A stretch of DNA of 64,000 nucleotides from Polynucleobacter arcticus (lineage in GTDB: Bacteria > Pseudomonadota > Gammaproteobacteria > Burkholderiales > Burkholderiaceae), in contig NZ_CP028940.1 of assembly GCF_013307205.1 (NCBI RefSeq), forward strand, positions 725,692 through 789,691. Direction: 5' to 3'. The position numbers and the translations under genes were made by a program. The notes under the pieces are model-generated. The model was not told where the DNA came from, did no database searches, and was given only the letters and a program-made list of their open reading frames with translations. Shown piece by piece: positions 26,571 to 31,996 of the stretch. Position 1 is the stretch's first letter; each line of letters begins with the position of its first letter.

Positions 26571-26819
26571 CTAATGCTCGTGAGTACGAGCAGCAATCCC
26601 ATGCGCCCGCTGAATGGGCGCCAACAAACCTCGTAAGCCGTTGTGATCTAAGGTGTGCATTAACTCCAACAACTCACCAAGCTCCCCCTTAGGAAATCCT
26701 TCACGAGCAAACCACGCCAAATAATTGCCAGGCAGGTCGGCCAAAGCTCGACCAGCGTGCTTACCAAACGGCATCTTCATATTCACGAGTTTCTCTAGCG
26801 CTTCTGAATTCATAAGCAT
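26571..26819 (-). CDS. DUF3820-family small protein
   Basis: 82 residues matching the DUF3820 (YpeB-like) family: MPFGKHAGRALADLPGNYLAWFAREGFPKGELGELL is diagnostic in style and the protein is normal in length. A homologous region occurs near some exonuclease/helicase proteins, so a nucleic-acid role is possible but unproven. The start may be the ATG at 26819 or the one at 26813. It is divergent from the Fur-box promoter, which lies 32 bp upstream, so it may share iron control. Confidence 0.82.
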   Translation of the reverse strand: MLMNSEALEKLVNMKMPFGKHAGRALADLPGNYLAWFAREGFPKGELGELLELMHTLDHNGLRGLLAPIQRAHGIAARTHEH

Positions 26820-26851: not shown

Positions 26852-26895
26852 TTGATAACGATTCTCATTTACTGTATATTGAGAATCATTCTCAA
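26852..26895 (+). promoter_or_regulatory. Promoter overlapped by two Fur boxes
   Basis: A sigma-70 promoter, TTGATA (26852-26857) and TATATT (26875-26880) with a 17-bp spacer, is covered by two 7-1-7 Fur-like sites: TGATAACGATTCTCA (26853-26867) over the -35, and the perfect palindrome TTGAGAATCATTCTCAA (26879-26895) just after the -10. Fur bound to iron would occlude RNA polymerase, so the genes from 26925 to 29875 should be induced in iron starvation. Confidence 0.85.
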
Positions 26896-26924
26896 TAACT
26901 TTTATCAACCTGACCCACATCAAC

Positions 26925-27839
26925 ATGAAAATGACCATCAAACGAATCACCTTATTTGCCGTCTTATTAGCCACAGCCCTCCATTTCTCATTTGCCAACG
27001 CAGGTGAAGGCGCCTTTGGCTGGATTTACACCCTGGATCTCCAACCCAAAGGGAAGCTCGAGTTTGAGCAGCGCCTACAACTTAATCAGCTGCAATCTGC
27101 TGGAACTTACGATGCTTGGACCGCTCGAACAGAGCTTGAGTATGGCCTCACCAATAATTTACAAATCGCCGGCTATATCAACTCCTACTACACCAGCGCA
27201 AGTCAGAACTACACCAATCCGGAAGCTTGTGGCGATAGCGCTAGCTGTACTGGTGGCTATGGAGTGCCATCTAGTCATGATCCTGCAACCCCTTATCGAA
27301 AGAGCGGGATTGAAGGTGGGTCACTAGAGGCAATTTATCGAATTACAAACCCAGTCACCTCACCAGTCGGAGTAGGACTCTATTTCGAGCCAACTATTGG
27401 AAAAAATAAGAACGAGATTGCAGCACGCCTATTACTGCAGTCCAACTTTATTGACGACAAGTTGATCTTGGCTGGGAACGTAGTCGTTGCGAATGAACGT
27501 CTGAAATTTATTGAGAATGGCAATGTGCCAGAGTCTATGCTCGATTTTCTTGTCGGCGCTAGCTATCGATTCGCACCCAAATGGTCTGCTGGTGTAGAGG
27601 CGCGCTTCCATAACGATTATTCCGAGTTGAATTTACGCAATCAAGTACAGCGCGCCACTTTTGTAGGGCCGAACATGCACTACGCCGCAAAAGACTGGTG
27701 GGTCACCGGTGCATGGCGCTATCAATTGAAGGGCGGCAACTGCATGGGTGGAGGCGAAGCGGAGTGTTCCAATGCGCGCGTTTGGGATAGTCACTCCGTG
27801 AATGAATTCATCGTCAAAGTTGGCTTTCCACTGAACTAA
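26925..27839 (+). CDS. DUF6662-like outer-membrane beta-barrel protein
   Basis: 304 residues with a signal peptide (about 1-26, ending NANAG-like FANAG). The mature part has amphipathic strands typical of outer-membrane barrels (GKLEFEQRLQLNQ, LTNNLQIAGYINSYYT, VGLYFEPTIG) and resembles the uncharacterised DUF6662 family. It has two possible disulfide regions (C103/C109 and C275/C282 approximately). Not TonB-dependent: no plug domain. First gene under the Fur-box promoter and upstream of flavin genes, so it may provide the outer-membrane conduit or substrate entry for the redox system; this is inference. Confidence 0.75.
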   Translation: MKMTIKRITLFAVLLATALHFSFANAGEGAFGWIYTLDLQPKGKLEFEQRLQLNQLQSAGTYDAWTARTELEYGLTNNLQIAGYINSYYTSASQNYTNPEACGDSASCTGGYGVPSSHDPATPYRKSGIEGGSLEAIYRITNPVTSPVGVGLYFEPTIGKNKNEIAARLLLQSNFIDDKLILAGNVVVANERLKFIENGNVPESMLDFLVGASYRFAPKWSAGVEARFHNDYSELNLRNQVQRATFVGPNMHYAAKDWWVTGAWRYQLKGGNCMGGGEAECSNARVWDSHSVNEFIVKVGFPLN

Positions 27840-27869
27840 AACCTCTACACCATTAACTCAGGAGCAATT

Positions 27870-28049
27870 ATGGGAACACAAAATTTATTAACAGCAGCAT
27901 TGATACATTTGATTGAATTTCAGTCATCGCATTGCAGCACTGCGAGGAAAAGGGCTTTGATGGTATTTGAAGCCTTATCCAATCTTCAAGATGGCAACTC
28001 TGAGATTGAAGCCCTCTGCCTTCAGGCAAACGAACTACGTTCTACTTAA
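27870..28049 (+). CDS. Small cytoplasmic protein of 59 residues in the Fur operon
   Basis: Short ORF starting MGTQNLLTAALIHLIEFQSS and ending at TAA 28049. An AGGAG ribosome site 6 bases before the ATG is one of the best in the window. Composition is helical and amphipathic, with two cysteines (C22, C50) and no signal peptide. I do not recognise it. It sits 30 bp after the DUF6662-like gene and 28 bp before the FMN-binding gene on the same strand, so it is part of the operon. A regulator, metal-handling protein or assembly factor are all possible. Confidence 0.7.
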   Translation: MGTQNLLTAALIHLIEFQSSHCSTARKRALMVFEALSNLQDGNSEIEALCLQANELRST

Positions 28050-28077
28050 ATATTAATTACCTAAAAAATTAGATCTT

Positions 28078-28632
28078 ATGTACTGGAATCCAAACCCCTT
28101 CATCATCATCGGCTTGGCAACTGCATTAGCCCCTATGGTTGCACAGGCAAAGATATACGTCTCTGTAGAGCAAGCCCAGAAAGTACTCTATCCCAATAAA
28201 TCACTTACGAAAAATCCCATCATCATTACCGATGACCTACAAGACCGGATGCGCTCCGCTTCCAGTATTCGACACCCTTTTCAAGGGGATCGCATCTGGA
28301 AAACATCGGATGGCGGCTGGTTCATTGTGGATGAAGTAGTAGGTAAACATGAAATGATTACCTATGCTGTAGCACTGAGCCCAACAGGCGCTGTTACTGG
28401 TGTTGAAATACTAGACTATGTGGAATCCTATGGCTACGAAGTTGCCGAAGTCCAATGGCGCAATCAGTTCATCGGCAAAACAGCAGCAGACCCAATCAAG
28501 CTCAATAAAGATATTCAGAATATTGGAGGCGCTACCCTCTCTTGTAAGCATCTTACTGATGGGGTAAAAAGAGTTGCTGTTTTGTATGAGATAGCCCTGA
28601 AAAATCAATATCAGGCTAGTAAATCCAAATGA
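28078..28632 (+). CDS. Periplasmic FMN-binding domain protein (covalently flavinylated)
   Basis: 184 residues: signal peptide (about 1-25), then one FMN-binding domain of the RnfG/NqrC/NosR type. The flavin-attachment motif GGATLS is at residues 150-155, with Thr153 as the predicted site where ApbE attaches FMN by a phosphoester bond; the usual Ser before GAT is Gly here. The next gene is apbE, overlapping by 4 bp (ATGA), which strongly supports modification of this protein. Role inferred: one-electron carrier between a membrane cytochrome and an extracytoplasmic acceptor, possibly ferric iron, since the operon is under Fur boxes. Confidence 0.87.
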   Translation: MYWNPNPFIIIGLATALAPMVAQAKIYVSVEQAQKVLYPNKSLTKNPIIITDDLQDRMRSASSIRHPFQGDRIWKTSDGGWFIVDEVVGKHEMITYAVALSPTGAVTGVEILDYVESYGYEVAEVQWRNQFIGKTAADPIKLNKDIQNIGGATLSCKHLTDGVKRVAVLYEIALKNQYQASKSK

Positions 28633-29453
28633 TGCGCTGCAAGCCCCTACTGGGAACCTTTGTAGAAATATCCACCCCAGATGAAGGGCGCTTTTCAAAT
28701 GCGATTGAGAATGCATTTTTAGCTATTGAAGAAGTCCAAGCTTTAATGGACTTCCATCATCCCAATAGCGAACTCACTCAAATCAATACACGCTCTCATC
28801 TGGAAGCTGTTCGTATTCATCCATGGACAGCCAAGGTGCTCATGATTGCTCAAGAGATGAACCTGCTTTCGGGGGGACTTTTTAATTGCGGAATTGGGCA
28901 CTGCTTAGTAGATAGTGGGCTTCTGCCTCGCAATCTTGATGCAGCAGACTACTTTGGAGGTATTGAGCATCTCAAATTTTTAGAGCCCACTTTAGTGCGA
29001 TCTGATCTCCCACTATGCCTTGATCTTGGAGGAATTGCCAAGGGATTTGCTGTGGATCTGGCTGTCAATGCACTCCAGTATGCCGGCGCTCTATCAGGAT
29101 CAGTCAATGCGGGAGGCGATATTAGGGTATTCGGAAATAAGGCGCAAGATATCCAAGTGAGGAATCCAGATCATCCTCACGAGGTGATTTACTTGGGGAA
29201 TCTGCGCGAAGGTGCCATTGCCACCAGTAGTCTTTACTTTGCTAAACGGGACAGGGCATCCCCTAGTTATCTAGTAAACCCCATCAATCGTGAGCATATT
29301 GAATTTTCTGATTCTTACTCAGTGATTGCAGATCAATGTGTTTATGCAGATGCCCTAACAAAAGTAGTATGCCTTTCTGGAAACATCCATCACCCTTGCT
29401 TGGCCCACTTCTGCGCCCAAGCAATCAACATCCCAAGCACCCTTACAGTATGA
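28629..29453 (+). CDS. apbE: FAD:protein FMN transferase (ApbE family)
   Basis: Transfers FMN from FAD onto Thr of FMN-binding domains. 274 residues, shorter than E. coli ApbE (about 350) and lacking an obvious signal peptide or lipobox in this frame, so it may act in the cytoplasm before export or use a non-classical N-terminus. Family hallmarks are present: LLGTFVEIS at the N-terminus, DLGGIAKGFAVD mid-protein, NAGGDIRVFG, and the Mg-binding ADALTKV near the C-terminus. It overlaps the FMN-binding gene before it and the membrane gene after it by 4 bp each. Confidence 0.9.
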   Translation: MMRCKPLLGTFVEISTPDEGRFSNAIENAFLAIEEVQALMDFHHPNSELTQINTRSHLEAVRIHPWTAKVLMIAQEMNLLSGGLFNCGIGHCLVDSGLLPRNLDAADYFGGIEHLKFLEPTLVRSDLPLCLDLGGIAKGFAVDLAVNALQYAGALSGSVNAGGDIRVFGNKAQDIQVRNPDHPHEVIYLGNLREGAIATSSLYFAKRDRASPSYLVNPINREHIEFSDSYSVIADQCVYADALTKVVCLSGNIHHPCLAHFCAQAINIPSTLTV

Positions 29454-29875
29454 AAAATACCAGTCGTCTAGGCAAGATGCCCCCATGGCAAAGATATTTT
29501 GTCCTCATTGGTATGTTCTGTTGCTCTCTTACGGGCACAGCCTATTTATTAGGCCATGAATTTCAGATCCAACGCACCTTCCTGGGGACACATGCCGTAT
29601 TAGCATGGCATGGAGTGGCCGCTATGCTGGCCAGTATTGCCTTAGGGTCGATACTACCCTTTCACCTGAAGGCGGGCCTCAAGTCCAAGAGAAAATTGCT
29701 TAGTGGATTGAGTCAGTTGGGATTTTTGATCACACTGATCATCACTGGCGCCCTGCTGTATTACGGTCCTGCGGAGTTACGAGAGTCGGTAGTGCTCACG
29801 CACTGGTTAATCGGGCTTGTATTCTTTGCCATCTTTTTACTGCATGGAGTGTATTCTCCAAAAACCCAGCCATAA
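29450..29875 (+). CDS. Four-helix histidine-rich membrane protein, putative cytochrome b-like
   Basis: 141 residues with four predicted membrane helices (about 16-35, 44-70, 86-105, 114-134). Histidines lie inside or at the edges of helices 2 and 4 (H48, H54, H118, H132), the arrangement expected for bis-histidine heme ligation in small DUF4405/cytochrome-b561-like proteins. I cannot name the family. Last gene of the Fur operon, ATG overlapping the apbE stop by 4 bp, so it is the likely membrane electron donor to the FMN protein. Heme binding is inference. Confidence 0.7.
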   Translation: MKNTSRLGKMPPWQRYFVLIGMFCCSLTGTAYLLGHEFQIQRTFLGTHAVLAWHGVAAMLASIALGSILPFHLKAGLKSKRKLLSGLSQLGFLITLIITGALLYYGPAELRESVVLTHWLIGLVFFAIFLLHGVYSPKTQP

Positions 29876-29887
29876 ATAGAAAAAATT

Positions 29888-30223
29888 TCATTTCTTGCAG
29901 TAGTGCTTGTACAGCAAACTTATTACAGACACGACTACCTGGCTTGATAAGGAATAGTAGATTTGCTTTCCCTCTCTACGTGTTTTGACCAACTTCTCTT
30001 TACGTAAGACAGTCAGCTGCTGTGAGAGGGTTGGCTGATGGAGATCAAGTGCAAGCTCCAGCTCGCCGACGCATTTTTCTGCCTGACCAATTTCACATAA
30101 GAGCATCATGCGATCCCGATTGGATAAGACCTTCATGAGCTTGCAGGCATCCTCTGCTGAGGATTGCATCTTCTTTAACTCCGATTTAGAAATCGGCATA
30201 TTCATCGTTTTCATTGCTGTCAT
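29888..30223 (-). CDS. ArsR-family repressor, BigR/SqrR-like persulfide sensor
   Basis: Winged-helix repressor of 111 residues. The recognition helix region is DLHQPTLSQQLTVLRKEKLV followed by the wing TRREGKQIYYSL. Cysteines 43 (LLCEIG) and 109 (near the C-terminus) match the positions of the two cysteines that form a tetrasulfide bridge in BigR/SqrR; C27 and C51 are extra. It lies 6 bp after the ETHE1-like dioxygenase gene on the same strand, as in known sulfide-responsive modules. It should repress the dioxygenase and perhaps the divergent exporter until persulfide appears. The exact start among several Met codons is uncertain. Confidence 0.82.
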   Translation of the reverse strand: MTAMKTMNMPISKSELKKMQSSAEDACKLMKVLSNRDRMMLLCEIGQAEKCVGELELALDLHQPTLSQQLTVLRKEKLVKTRREGKQIYYSLSSQVVVSVISLLYKHYCKK

Positions 30224-30229
30224 AGCGCA

Positions 30230-31105
30230 TCAGAGCGTGTTTAATGGGATCTTTAAATAAGACATCCCATTGCTCTCTGGCTCAGGAAAGTGGCCAGCAC
30301 GAATATTGACCTGAATAGCGGGCAAAATGAGTACGGGCATCTCTAGCGTTTGATCTCGTGCAGTACGCATCTGAACAAACTGCGCTTCGCTAACACCATC
30401 ATGCACATGAATATTGCTAGCCTTCTGATCCGCAACCGTTGTCATACATGCAGCAGGTCGATTATTTGGTGGGTAGTCATGACATAAATACAGTTTGGTC
30501 TGCGCCGGATAGGACAAGATCTTTTGGATAGAGTGATAAAGATTTTTAGCACTTCCACCCGGAAAGTCACATCGGGCGGCGCCAACATCGGGCATAAATA
30601 ATGTATCGCCTACAAAAATAGCATCACCGATTTCATAAGCCATACATGCGGGAGTATGGCCAGGCACAAAGAGCGCTTTTAATGAGAGTTTGCCAAATGG
30701 GAGAGACTCACCCTCTTTCAGTAAATGGTCAAATTGCGCACCATTAGCCTGAAAACGTTCATCCAGATTGAAAATGCCCTTGAATACAGCCTGCACAATC
30801 GTGATGTGATCCCCAATCACCAACTTGCCGCCCAAGTGACTTTGTAGATAAGGGGCTGCCGTTAAATGATCTGCGTGGGCATGCGTCTCTAAAATCCAGA
30901 CTGTCTCTAGTTGGTGCGCCTGAATAAAGGCAATAACTTCATTTGCTGATGTCGTATTTGTTCTGCCAGATTTAGGGTCGTAATTTAGTACTGAATCAAT
31001 GATGACGCAAGGGCTGCCATCCGCCTCATAAACAACATAGGTGTAGGTCCCAGTTTCTGGATCATAGAAGTCCTTAATCAGCGCTTCTGGTTTTAAATTT
31101 AACAT
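30230..31105 (-). CDS. ETHE1-like persulfide dioxygenase (Blh type, MBL fold)
   Basis: Iron-dependent dioxygenase oxidising glutathione persulfide to sulfite. 291 residues. The metal motif HAHADH is at residues 75-80 and further ligands are seen in PGHTPACMAY, FVGDTLF and LCHDYPP; this pattern plus the GAARCDFPGGSA segment is typical of the ETHE1/Blh branch rather than glyoxalase II. An AGGTGA ribosome site precedes the ATG. It is paired with the BigR-like repressor downstream and the TauE/SafE exporter divergently upstream, which would remove the sulfite. Confidence 0.88.
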   Translation of the reverse strand: MLNLKPEALIKDFYDPETGTYTYVVYEADGSPCVIIDSVLNYDPKSGRTNTTSANEVIAFIQAHQLETVWILETHAHADHLTAAPYLQSHLGGKLVIGDHITIVQAVFKGIFNLDERFQANGAQFDHLLKEGESLPFGKLSLKALFVPGHTPACMAYEIGDAIFVGDTLFMPDVGAARCDFPGGSAKNLYHSIQKILSYPAQTKLYLCHDYPPNNRPAACMTTVADQKASNIHVHDGVSEAQFVQMRTARDQTLEMPVLILPAIQVNIRAGHFPEPESNGMSYLKIPLNTL

Positions 31106-31168
31106 AGACTTTCACCTAAATAAATAATATATATATTTATATACTATATTAATCTAAAATAAACTGCA
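31106..31168. promoter_or_regulatory. AT-rich divergent promoter/operator region
   Basis: The 63-bp spacer between the dioxygenase and exporter genes is almost pure A/T in its centre (31122-31157), with overlapping inverted AT repeats such as AATATATATATT (31127-31138). BigR-type repressors are known to bind AT-rich inverted repeats, so it is a plausible shared operator. Confidence 0.5.
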
Positions 31169-31996
31169 ATGGACTACTCAACCCTTATTAGCCCCGCATT
31201 AGGAATTCTGGTGGGTTTACTCATGGGCCTCACAGGAGCCGGTGGTGGGATTTTGTCAGTACCACTGCTGGTTTTCTTCCTAGGCTTTCCTATCGCAGAG
31301 GCGGCCCCGATCGCTCTTTGTGCCGTTGCCCTAGCTTCTAGCATTGGTGCAGTCCTAGGCCTGAAAGACGGGATCTTGCGCTACAAGGCGGCTGGTTTCA
31401 TGGCGATCTTTGGTTTAGCGCTGTCCCCAATAGGACTTTGGCTTGCACCCAAGATACCCAATGCCCCCTTACAGATTGCATTTAGCTTCATATTGCTATT
31501 CGTAGCCATTCGCCTGCTAAGTCAGGCTCGTAATGCCATCAAAGGCATCCCTGAGGAAAGCAGGCAACCTCCACCCTGCCTCATGAACCCCAGTATCGGC
31601 AAGCTCCAATGGACCGTACCTTGCGCACGCGCCCTCATGTTTGCAGGCGGTCTCGCAGGCTTTTTATCTGGCTTACTTGGTGTTGGTGGTGGCTTCATCA
31701 TCGTGCCAGCGCTCAAGCGTTATACAGACTTACCAGTCAAATCTATTGTCGCAACCTCGCTTGGTGTACTCGCCATCATTACCGGTGGTGGTGCGATTTT
31801 CTCAGCAGTGCGCGGGGGTCTCAATGTGTCGGTTGCTGCGCCGTTTGCAATTGCTGCATTAGGCGGCTTACTAATGGGTTTACTCTTAGGAAAAAAATTG
31901 AGTGGTCCACTTACTCAACTAATTTTTTCTGTCTTCGCTCTAGTAATTTCCATTGGACTACTCATTAAAGGTGTATTACTTTTAACTACCTATTAA
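31169..31996 (+). CDS. TauE/SafE-family exporter (probable sulfite exporter)
   Basis: Inner-membrane permease of 275 residues with about eight helices in two repeats, each starting with the family signature: GLTGAGGGILSVPLLVF near the N-terminus and GLLGVGGGFIIVPAL mid-protein. Its position divergent from the persulfide dioxygenase gene implies export of the sulfite produced. It terminates inside a triple 11-bp repeat and is followed by an intrinsic terminator. Confidence 0.87.
   Translation: MDYSTLISPALGILVGLLMGLTGAGGGILSVPLLVFFLGFPIAEAAPIALCAVALASSIGAVLGLKDGILRYKAAGFMAIFGLALSPIGLWLAPKIPNAPLQIAFSFILLFVAIRLLSQARNAIKGIPEESRQPPPCLMNPSIGKLQWTVPCARALMFAGGLAGFLSGLLGVGGGFIIVPALKRYTDLPVKSIVATSLGVLAIITGGGAIFSAVRGGLNVSVAAPFAIAALGGLLMGLLLGKKLSGPLTQLIFSVFALVISIGLLIKGVLLLTTY

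What the first reader, a model, noticed from the sequence alone, without database searches (positions are those of the whole stretch)
26852..29875. Fur-controlled flavinylation/heme operon, a candidate iron-starvation electron-transfer system
A promoter overlapped by two 7-1-7 Fur-like boxes drives five tightly packed genes: a DUF6662-like barrel, a 59-aa ORF, an FMN-binding domain protein with a GAT flavin site, apbE, and a four-helix protein with paired histidines in helices 2 and 4. Three of them overlap by 4 bp. Covalent FMN carriers with ApbE are established parts of extracytoplasmic electron transfer. Combining one with Fur boxes, a membrane cytochrome-like protein and an outer-membrane barrel suggests a periplasmic or surface ferric reductase that is not siderophore based. 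That function is inference.
Basis: partly seen in the sequence, partly recalled or inferred. Interest (0 to 1): 0.75.

Follow-up and report, generated by a model that had tools for sequence, protein, structure and literature searches.

The report
Iron-controlled flavin and heme electron-transfer operon
A freshwater bacterium carries a small operon, apparently switched on by iron shortage, that encodes an outer-membrane barrel, a protein predicted to carry a covalently attached flavin, the enzyme that attaches it and a tiny heme-type membrane protein; it most likely reduces ferric iron outside the cytoplasm so that it can be taken up.

Summary
The window lies in a Polynucleobacter-like genome. 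Two Fur-type boxes overlap one promoter ahead of five genes: DUF6662 barrel, 59-aa ORF, FMN_bind carrier, apbE, four-helix protein. At least one box occurs in 34 of 34 genus loci and a tandem pair in 31, against 1 box and no pair in 1837 control windows. The same exact box precedes feoB, hemS, fbpA-like and HiPIP genes in relatives, which identifies it as Fur. The four-helix protein keeps four invariant histidines, fitting a minimal diheme cytochrome b. ApbE shows no signal peptide although its substrate has one. Of 89 FeoB-bearing genus genomes 84 have the carrier gene; 24 of 25 with hemS lack it. These associations are clade-structured and not significant on a tree. feoB lies downstream in four related loci elsewhere. 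The carrier recurs in 30 of 158 sampled genera of the order. Against a purely iron role, some copies neighbour copper-resistance genes or follow a cytochrome c peroxidase gene, and the window genome has no FeoB match. Verdict: a new variant of flavin-based assimilatory metal reductases.

The parts
26852..26880 (+). sigma-70-like promoter TTGATA-17-TATATT
   Evidence: 10 of 12 consensus matches (such patterns are not rarer in shuffles); TATATT running into a box recurs in 25 of 34 genus upstream regions
26853..26867 (.). Fur-type box 1, TGATAACGATTCTCA
   Evidence: 2 mismatches to 7-1-7 consensus; tandem arrangement in 31 of 34 genus loci
26877..26897 (.). Fur-type box 2, perfect 21-bp palindrome around TGAGAATCATTCTCA (26880-26894)
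   Evidence: same exact box ahead of feoB, hemS, fbpA-like and HiPIP genes in genus genomes
26925..27839 (+). DUF6662-type outer-membrane beta-barrel with signal peptide (peptide read by eye)
   Evidence: PF20367 over cut-off, partial match 202-272; detected in 34 of 34 genus loci (shortened frames in L033 and L043)
27870..28049 (+). 59-aa protein with two conserved cysteines, function unknown
   Evidence: no Pfam match below E 0.01 and no NCBIfam match; orthologues in 23 of 34 loci, both cysteines in 23 of 23
28078..28632 (+). FMN_bind protein with Sec-type signal peptide; predicted FMN attachment at Thr153 (GGAT)
   Evidence: PF04205; only FMN_bind match in the genome; G151 A152 T153 invariant in 27 of 27 aligned; profile finds RnfG 9eri_G E 1.1e-7
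28629..29453 (+). apbE, FAD:protein FMN transferase without a visible signal peptide
   Evidence: PF02424; only ApbE match in the genome; PDB ApbE relatives; conserved ADALTK site; no leader by eye
29450..29875 (+). four-helix membrane protein, likely diheme b-type cytochrome (His54, 72, 118, 132)
   Evidence: invariant in 36 of 36 aligned and 11 of 11 in a wider alpha- and betaproteobacterial set; weak Ni_hydr_CYTB and DUF4405 similarity

Best explanation
A Fur-repressed assimilatory Fe(III) reductase. When iron is scarce Fur leaves the two boxes. Electrons from the quinol pool or a cytosolic reductase cross the inner membrane through the small four-histidine cytochrome b, pass to the FMN covalently held on Thr153 of the periplasmic FMN_bind protein, and reduce Fe(III) that enters through the DUF6662 barrel. 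The Fe(II) is then taken up, by FeoB in most relatives; the importer in this genome is not identified. Supported by sequence and comparison: Fur boxes, single ApbE and single substrate, intact motifs, invariant histidines, co-occurrence. Inferred: electron direction, donor, flavin and heme loading, Fe(III) as acceptor, role of the barrel.
For: Fur: conserved tandem boxes and regulon content feoB, hemS, fbpA-like, HiPIP, tonB plus receptor. Outside the genus 19 of 22 near-perfect boxes in 60 loci lie upstream of the carrier gene; reversed control 1 site. Dedicated flavinylation: FMN_bind and ApbE single-copy. Redox parts. Iron: 84 of 89 FeoB-bearing genus genomes carry the carrier gene, and 51 of 54 with FeoB but neither FbpA-like nor HemS; feoB downstream in L203 (one barrel-like ORF between) and L214, both Azonexaceae, and in L333 and L338. 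Complementary to heme use: 24 of 25 hemS genomes lack it. Precedents: PMC8238504 (flavinylated assimilatory iron reductases proposed; abstract and passages), PMC10760861 (periplasmic reduction before FeoAB in B. japonicum; passages), PMC5449479 (apbE mutant of B. breve impaired under ferrous chelation; FMN-binding SifE; passages).
Against: The window genome has no FeoB_C match, so the Fe(II) importer is unidentified. On a GroEL tree of 80 of the 151 genomes the associations reduce to few independent events and are not significant. Carrier and FbpA-like are negatively associated (59 both, 54 carrier only, 33 FbpA only, 5 neither), yet the window genome has both. PMC6629928 (section 12) says that P. 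asymbioticus cannot use the Fe(III) of its medium; if the genome G320 is that strain (length recalled), it has the carrier gene. One homologue, L047, sits among copper-resistance genes, another between multicopper oxidase genes (L307), and 8 of 60 order-level loci have a cytochrome c peroxidase gene in front. FeoB is linked in only 3 of those 60 loci, one on the opposite strand. Quinol may be too weak a reductant for an RnfG/NqrC-like FMN (recalled chemistry). No expression data for this operon were seen.
Confidence: 0.6

Rival explanations
1. A general periplasmic metal reductase module (Cu as well as Fe, or coupled to a peroxidase) that Polynucleobacter has placed under Fur; iron is one of several acceptors.
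For: Copper-resistance neighbours of L047: CusS, response regulator, multicopper oxidase, P-type ATPase; multicopper oxidases next to the Methylocystis copy; cytochrome c peroxidase in front in 8 of 60 loci.
Against: Inside the genus the boxes, the FeoB association and the Fur regulon all point to iron; Fur-like boxes also precede peroxidase-led copies (L341, L342, L354).
Confidence: 0.16
2. A reductase for iron bound to siderophores or other chelates brought in by the Fur-controlled TonB-dependent receptor, not for inorganic iron.
For: tonB and a receptor share the Fur-type box in the window genome; receptors lie near the L052 and Ideonella copies; FsrB and FoxB do this job (PMC10760861, passages).
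Against: No receptor gene adjoins the operon in the window (other genus loci were not searched for receptors); the operon carries its own barrel.
Confidence: 0.14
3. An iron-sparing replacement: the flavin carrier substitutes for c-type cytochromes or Fe-S carriers in respiration when iron is short.
For: PMC8238504 (discussion passage) suggests flavinylated carriers could be advantageous in iron-poor settings; Fur control fits.
Against: The partner has four invariant histidines expected to bind two hemes; FeoB association and feoB neighbours are not explained.
Confidence: 0.07
4. Chance Fur-like boxes ahead of an unrelated flavinylation operon.
For: TGATAATNATTATCA with 2 mismatches is no commoner in this genome than its control.
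Against: Tandem boxes in 31 of 34 loci, control 0 of 1837; exact matches in 37 of 46 genomes, control 0 of 46.
Confidence: 0.03

Closest known systems
PepSY-like / MsrQ-like / DUF4405 flavinylation-associated systems (PMC8238504, PMC11334425)
   Same: ApbE, covalently flavinylated carrier, heme-type membrane protein with conserved histidines; links to iron and Fur
   Different: Membrane protein here is about 140 aa with four helices and misses the Pfam cut-offs for DUF4405 and cytochrome b561 (DUF4405 is described as six-helix, PMC11334425 section 11); ApbE shows no leader; an outer-membrane barrel is part of the operon
FsrB / FoxB / FrcB periplasmic ferric reductases plus FeoAB
   Same: Proposed periplasmic Fe(III) reduction followed by Fe(II) uptake through FeoB
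   Different: These are single membrane proteins with large periplasmic domains; no flavoprotein partner is mentioned in the passages seen (PMC10760861, PMC13038864); FrcB known only from citations there
RnfG / NqrC
   Same: Nearest solved FMN_bind relatives of the carrier
   Different: Those are subunits of large ion pumps (recalled); score here is far below the rnfG cut-off (22.9 against 102) and the carrier is the only FMN_bind match of the genome
SifABCDE / P19-FTR1 systems with FMN_bind proteins
   Same: FMN_bind protein SifE in a cluster induced by iron limitation, and an apbE mutant impaired under ferrous chelation (PMC5449479, passages); P19 clusters with FMN_bind (PMC8238504, passages)
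   Different: Built around iron transporters, mostly in Gram-positives; no heme membrane protein or barrel is described in the passages seen

Membership tests
FMN_bind flavinylation substrates | FMN_bind domain over curated cut-off | tested here: met
   36.6 bits against 22
FMN_bind flavinylation substrates | [SG]GA[ST] attachment motif | tested here: met
   G151 A152 T153 invariant in 27 of 27 aligned; residue 150 is G in the window and most close relatives, S in others
FMN_bind flavinylation substrates | Covalently bound FMN | not testable with these tools
   needs mass spectrometry
ApbE flavin transferases | ApbE family match and conserved metal/FAD site | tested here: met
   117.4 bits against 25.6; G135, A137, K138, G139, D241 and T244 invariant in 10 of 10 (site roles recalled)
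ApbE flavin transferases | Lipoprotein or signal peptide of the usual extracytosolic ApbE | tested here: not met
   protein starts MMRCKPLLGTFVEI; 28 of 34 genus loci have no in-frame start upstream of the homologous start, 6 have one within 8 to 53 codons; annotated plasmid copies also start without a leader. By eye: no signal-peptide program was available
DUF4405 / FezC / MsrQ / PepSY cytochromes | Family match over curated cut-off | tested here: not met
   window protein: DUF4405 14.3 bits against 26.7, Ni_hydr_CYTB 13.7 against 30.1; among 36 members DUF4405 best E 4.5e-4 (18 members), Ni_hydr_CYTB best E 3.7e-9 (13 members)
DUF4405 / FezC / MsrQ / PepSY cytochromes | Four conserved histidines | tested here: met
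   four invariant histidines
DUF4405 / FezC / MsrQ / PepSY cytochromes | Two histidines on each membrane face | tested here: inconclusive
   facing is only inferred from hydropathy; no model could be made
DUF4405 / FezC / MsrQ / PepSY cytochromes | Heme b bound | not testable with these tools
   needs spectroscopy
RNF/NQR complexes | RnfG subfamily score | tested here: not met
   22.9 bits against 102
Fur regulon | Conserved box shared with known iron genes | tested here: met
Fur regulon | Fur binding or iron-dependent expression | not testable with these tools
   needs footprint or RNA data

The most novel reading that the evidence does not exclude
A flavin-based electron conduit through the envelope: the barrel and the flavoprotein work together at the outer membrane, as porin-cytochrome conduits do but with covalent FMN in place of multiheme cytochromes, to reduce iron at the cell surface; and the leaderless ApbE attaches FMN in the cytosol before Sec export of the carrier, an order of events not described for FMN_bind proteins in the passages that I read.
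Probability: 0.1. Interest if true: 0.85.

Novelty: new variant of a known kind. Interest (0 to 1): 0.6.

Why it matters
Bacteria that import iron as Fe(II) in oxic water must first reduce Fe(III), and the reductase for inorganic iron can be unknown: PMC10760861 states that B. japonicum needs 'a different, unknown ferric reductase' for it. PMC6629928 states that P. asymbioticus is known to have only ferrous uptake and cannot use the Fe(III) of its medium, although 84 of 89 FeoB-bearing Polynucleobacter genomes examined have this carrier gene. If the reading is right, a module whose carrier occurs in 30 of 158 sampled genera of the order fills that gap, and the question becomes testable by one deletion in a harmless freshwater bacterium.

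Tried and rejected
Chance boxes: rejected. The canonical motif TGATAATNATTATCA alone was uninformative genome-wide (10 sites, control 9), and a 19-base form found nothing in the window. RnfG/NqrC membership of the carrier: rejected on score. Filing the four-helix protein under DUF4405 or cytochrome b561: not done, cut-offs missed. Solved-structure sequence search for that protein and for the barrel: nothing credible. DUF6662 in papers: 0 of 5.39 million. Phylogenetic test of the HemS and FeoB associations: too few independent events, not significant. A functional assignment of the 59-aa gene was not reached. Structure prediction was never accepted: the machine was busy at all attempts, so no fold search was made.
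Full report
WHAT IS THERE. The window is part of a 2.09-Mb single-contig genome. Its nearest named relatives at this locus are Polynucleobacter records (best named hit 89% identity, P. aenigmaticus), so I treat it as that genus. The fmn, apbE and last genes overlap by 4 bp each. The last gene ends 12 bases short of a convergent ArsR-type (BigR-like, under that model's cut-off) regulator gene at 29888-30223; no terminator pattern was found there.

CONTROL REGION. The two boxes have 2 mismatches each to the 7-1-7 consensus and are the only such sites in the window; at 3 mismatches the window is not enriched. The second is the core of a perfect 21-bp palindrome at 26877-26897. In the genome, TGAGAATNATTCTCA occurs exactly only here; one site with a single mismatch lies ahead of tonB and a TonB-dependent receptor. 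In 46 genus genomes the exact motif is present in 37, and the reversed control in 0. I read 43 loci around such sites. Those outside the operon include sites ahead of HemS, FeoB, an FbpA-like binding protein with a divergent patatin gene, and HiPIP; one example of each kind was confirmed by hmmscan, the others by eye. At least one site (L091) has no recognisable iron gene beside it. This gene list is what identifies the box as Fur. All 34 genus loci have at least one box with 2 or fewer mismatches to one of four forms, and 31 of 34 have a pair 27, 28 or 30 bp apart (6, 16 and 9 loci). The exceptions are L033, L044 and L045. Control: 1 box and no pair in 1837 random windows of the same loci. 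TATATT running into a box recurs in 25 of 34 regions.

THE PROTEINS. FMN_bind and ApbE each have one match in the genome, so the ApbE is probably dedicated to this carrier. The carrier has a Sec-type signal peptide without a twin arginine (by eye). D145, G151, A152, T153, S155 and H158 are invariant in the 27 sequences aligned, of 49 distinct ones. Its nearest solved relatives are RnfG and NqrC. ApbE keeps its conserved site but shows no leader in the members listed or in the annotated plasmid copies: 28 of 34 genus loci have no in-frame start upstream of the homologous start, and the other 6 have one within 8 to 53 codons. In GC-rich relatives the frame stays open upstream and the true start is uncertain. 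PMC12052999 (passages) says that most ApbEs are secreted lipoproteins and that cytosolic ones exist, for example one that flavinylates a soluble fumarate reductase; a leaderless ApbE paired with an exported FMN_bind protein is therefore a puzzle. The four-helix protein has H54 and H72 in helix 2 and H118 and H132 in helix 4, invariant in the 36 aligned of 49 and in 11 of 11 of a wider set with alphaproteobacterial members. That is the arrangement expected for two b hemes across the membrane (inference). The window's protein stays under every Pfam cut-off. The barrel matches DUF6662 over part of its length. The 59-aa gene has orthologues in 23 of 34 loci, both cysteines kept in 23 of 23.

CONSERVATION. 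In a sample of 299 family genomes the carrier was found in 49, including 34 of 40 of the genus as listed. In the 34 genus loci the barrel, fmn, apbE and four-helix genes are all detectable in the same order; three loci (L015, L033, L043) have interrupted frames in one or more of them. The 80 best of 347 relatives in the GTDB collection were kept: 79 have the barrel, 78 apbE and 74 the four-helix gene, with most misses at contig ends; L207, missed by that search, does have the four-helix gene. Most of these 80 are Polynucleobacter. In the order, 64 of 399 genomes and 30 of 158 genera match the carrier at E 1e-15. Of 64 places outside the genus I fetched 60, leaving out two fragments and two of the weakest matches. 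Of these 60 loci 51 have apbE downstream, 46 the four-helix gene downstream within 2.5 kb, and 34 a recognised barrel or porin upstream. A plasmid search gave 8 records; I opened five. One is unannotated; Sphingomonas, Bradyrhizobium, Methylocystis and Ideonella show the same four-gene order. The upstream protein is DUF6662 in one, weakly porin-like (under cut-off) in another and unrecognised in two. In another branch of the family (L052, L063) it matches Porin_O_P.

IRON LINK. In the same 151 genus genomes the carrier is in 113, FbpA-like in 92, FeoB in 89 and HemS in 25; only the carrier, not the whole operon, was searched there. Carrier and FeoB: 84 both, 29 carrier only, 5 FeoB only, 33 neither. 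Carrier and HemS: 1 both, 112 carrier only, 24 HemS only, 14 neither. Carrier and FbpA-like: 59, 54, 33, 5. Fisher p values are 2.4e-11, 4.7e-17 and 1.1e-4 (the last two negative associations) but ignore ancestry. On a GroEL tree of 80 of the 151 genomes (all 32 carrier-negative genomes with a near-complete GroEL hit, 48 chosen positives; G352 is a long branch) the carrier needs 9 changes, HemS 7 and FeoB 13. Carrier-differing pairs on supported branches number only 4: HemS went the opposite way in 0.7 on average and the same way in 0.0; FeoB the same way in 2.2 and the opposite way in 0.2. Taken the other way round, 5 HemS-differing pairs gave 0.1 same and 0.7 opposite, and 9 FeoB-differing pairs 2.5 same and 0.0 opposite. 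None is significant. The associations are therefore suggestive, not proven. Of 54 genomes with FeoB but neither FbpA-like nor HemS, 51 have the carrier; the other three (G374, G376, G399) are 73, 91 and 84% complete. FeoB lies downstream in an Azonexaceae genome, after a second barrel-like ORF that matched no family (L203), and directly downstream in a Dechloromonas MAG of the same family (L214). It also lies directly downstream in two related order-level loci (L333, L338), with a third on the opposite strand (L364). In those 60 loci 19 of 22 near-perfect Fur-type boxes lie 200-3000 bases upstream of fmn, a region holding 23% of the bases (binomial p 6e-10, not corrected for ancestry; reversed control 1 site). 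Three of them stand 41-91 bp ahead of a cytochrome c peroxidase-porin-fmn operon. In six others a quinone-oxidoreductase-like ORF (by eye) stands between box and fmn, so control of the module is uncertain there. A narrower test of 360-bp stretches at the first recognised gene gave 6 of 60 loci with a box of 2 or fewer mismatches against 34 of 1602 control windows (Fisher p 0.003).

AGAINST. The window genome has no FeoB_C match, so its Fe(II) importer is unknown. Four related loci (L046-L049) have no box within 3 mismatches of TGATAATNATTATCA; with the four-form test L046 and L047 have a site with 2 mismatches. The FeoB-linked L203 has no box within 3 mismatches in 400 bp, and L214 only one 332 bp upstream. 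L047 lies among CusS, a response regulator, a multicopper oxidase and a P-type ATPase. A Methylocystis copy lies between multicopper oxidase genes. So the module can serve other metals or partners.

LITERATURE. PMC8238504 (abstract and passages) proposes flavinylated assimilatory iron reductases with PepSY-like, MsrQ-like and NQR/RNF-like membrane parts, PepSY-like ones partly under Fur. PMC11334425 (passages and section 11) adds DUF4405 and FezC cytochromes. PMC10760861 (passages) describes periplasmic reduction followed by FeoAB in B. japonicum and leaves the inorganic ferric reductase unknown. PMC6629928 (passages and section 12) reports feoAB and TonB up in P. asymbioticus in an apparently iron-limited co-culture and says that its Fe(III) cannot be used; ApbE and FMN do not occur in its main text. 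PMC5449479 (passages) reports that an apbE mutant of B. breve is impaired under ferrous chelation. PMC13038864 (passages) proposes a PepSY_TM copper reductase. In searches no listed title or start of abstract describes this operon; subscription papers are mostly absent from that library.

VERDICT. The parts and Fur control are well supported (about 0.95 for Fur, 0.9 for flavinylation, 0.85 for heme, all my own estimates). It is a new variant of a known kind, distinguished by the minimal four-helix diheme-type partner, the leaderless ApbE, the barrel and the tandem Fur promoter.

Noticed in passing
28629-29453; loci: ApbE shows no signal peptide in the members examined although its presumed substrate looks Sec-exported; where flavinylation happens is unexplained.
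   Followed up: partly
27870-28049: A 59-aa protein with two conserved cysteines sits between barrel and carrier in 23 of 34 genus loci and was not found in the rest; no family match.
   Followed up: partly
L043 (G094): The operon is decayed in one small genome (fmn, apbE and barrel frames interrupted) that keeps FeoB.
   Followed up: no
[quoted passage not shown] PMC6629928 reports HiPIP lower, not higher, in the apparently iron-limited samples.
   Followed up: partly
L115, L116, L119, L120, L121: A patatin-like phospholipase gene is divergent from the FbpA-like gene with a shared Fur-type box (patatin confirmed for L115 and L120).
   Followed up: no
L341, L342, L354 (probably L367): Fur-type box ahead of a cytochrome c peroxidase, porin, FMN_bind operon: a second layout of the module.
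   Followed up: partly
L046-L049: Closely similar copies of the module in large-genome relatives; L047 lies among copper-resistance genes.
   Followed up: partly
26571-26819 (-): A divergent gene (PF12843) shares the promoter region with the Fur boxes and is found next to the operon in most genus loci; it may be co-regulated.
   Followed up: no
29888-31996: Downstream BigR-like regulator, a metallo-beta-lactamase-like hydrolase and a TauE-like permease (the last two by eye) resemble a sulfide-detoxification operon, unrelated to the finding.
   Followed up: no
G304, G329: Two genus genomes carry two full-length copies of the FMN_bind gene.
   Followed up: no
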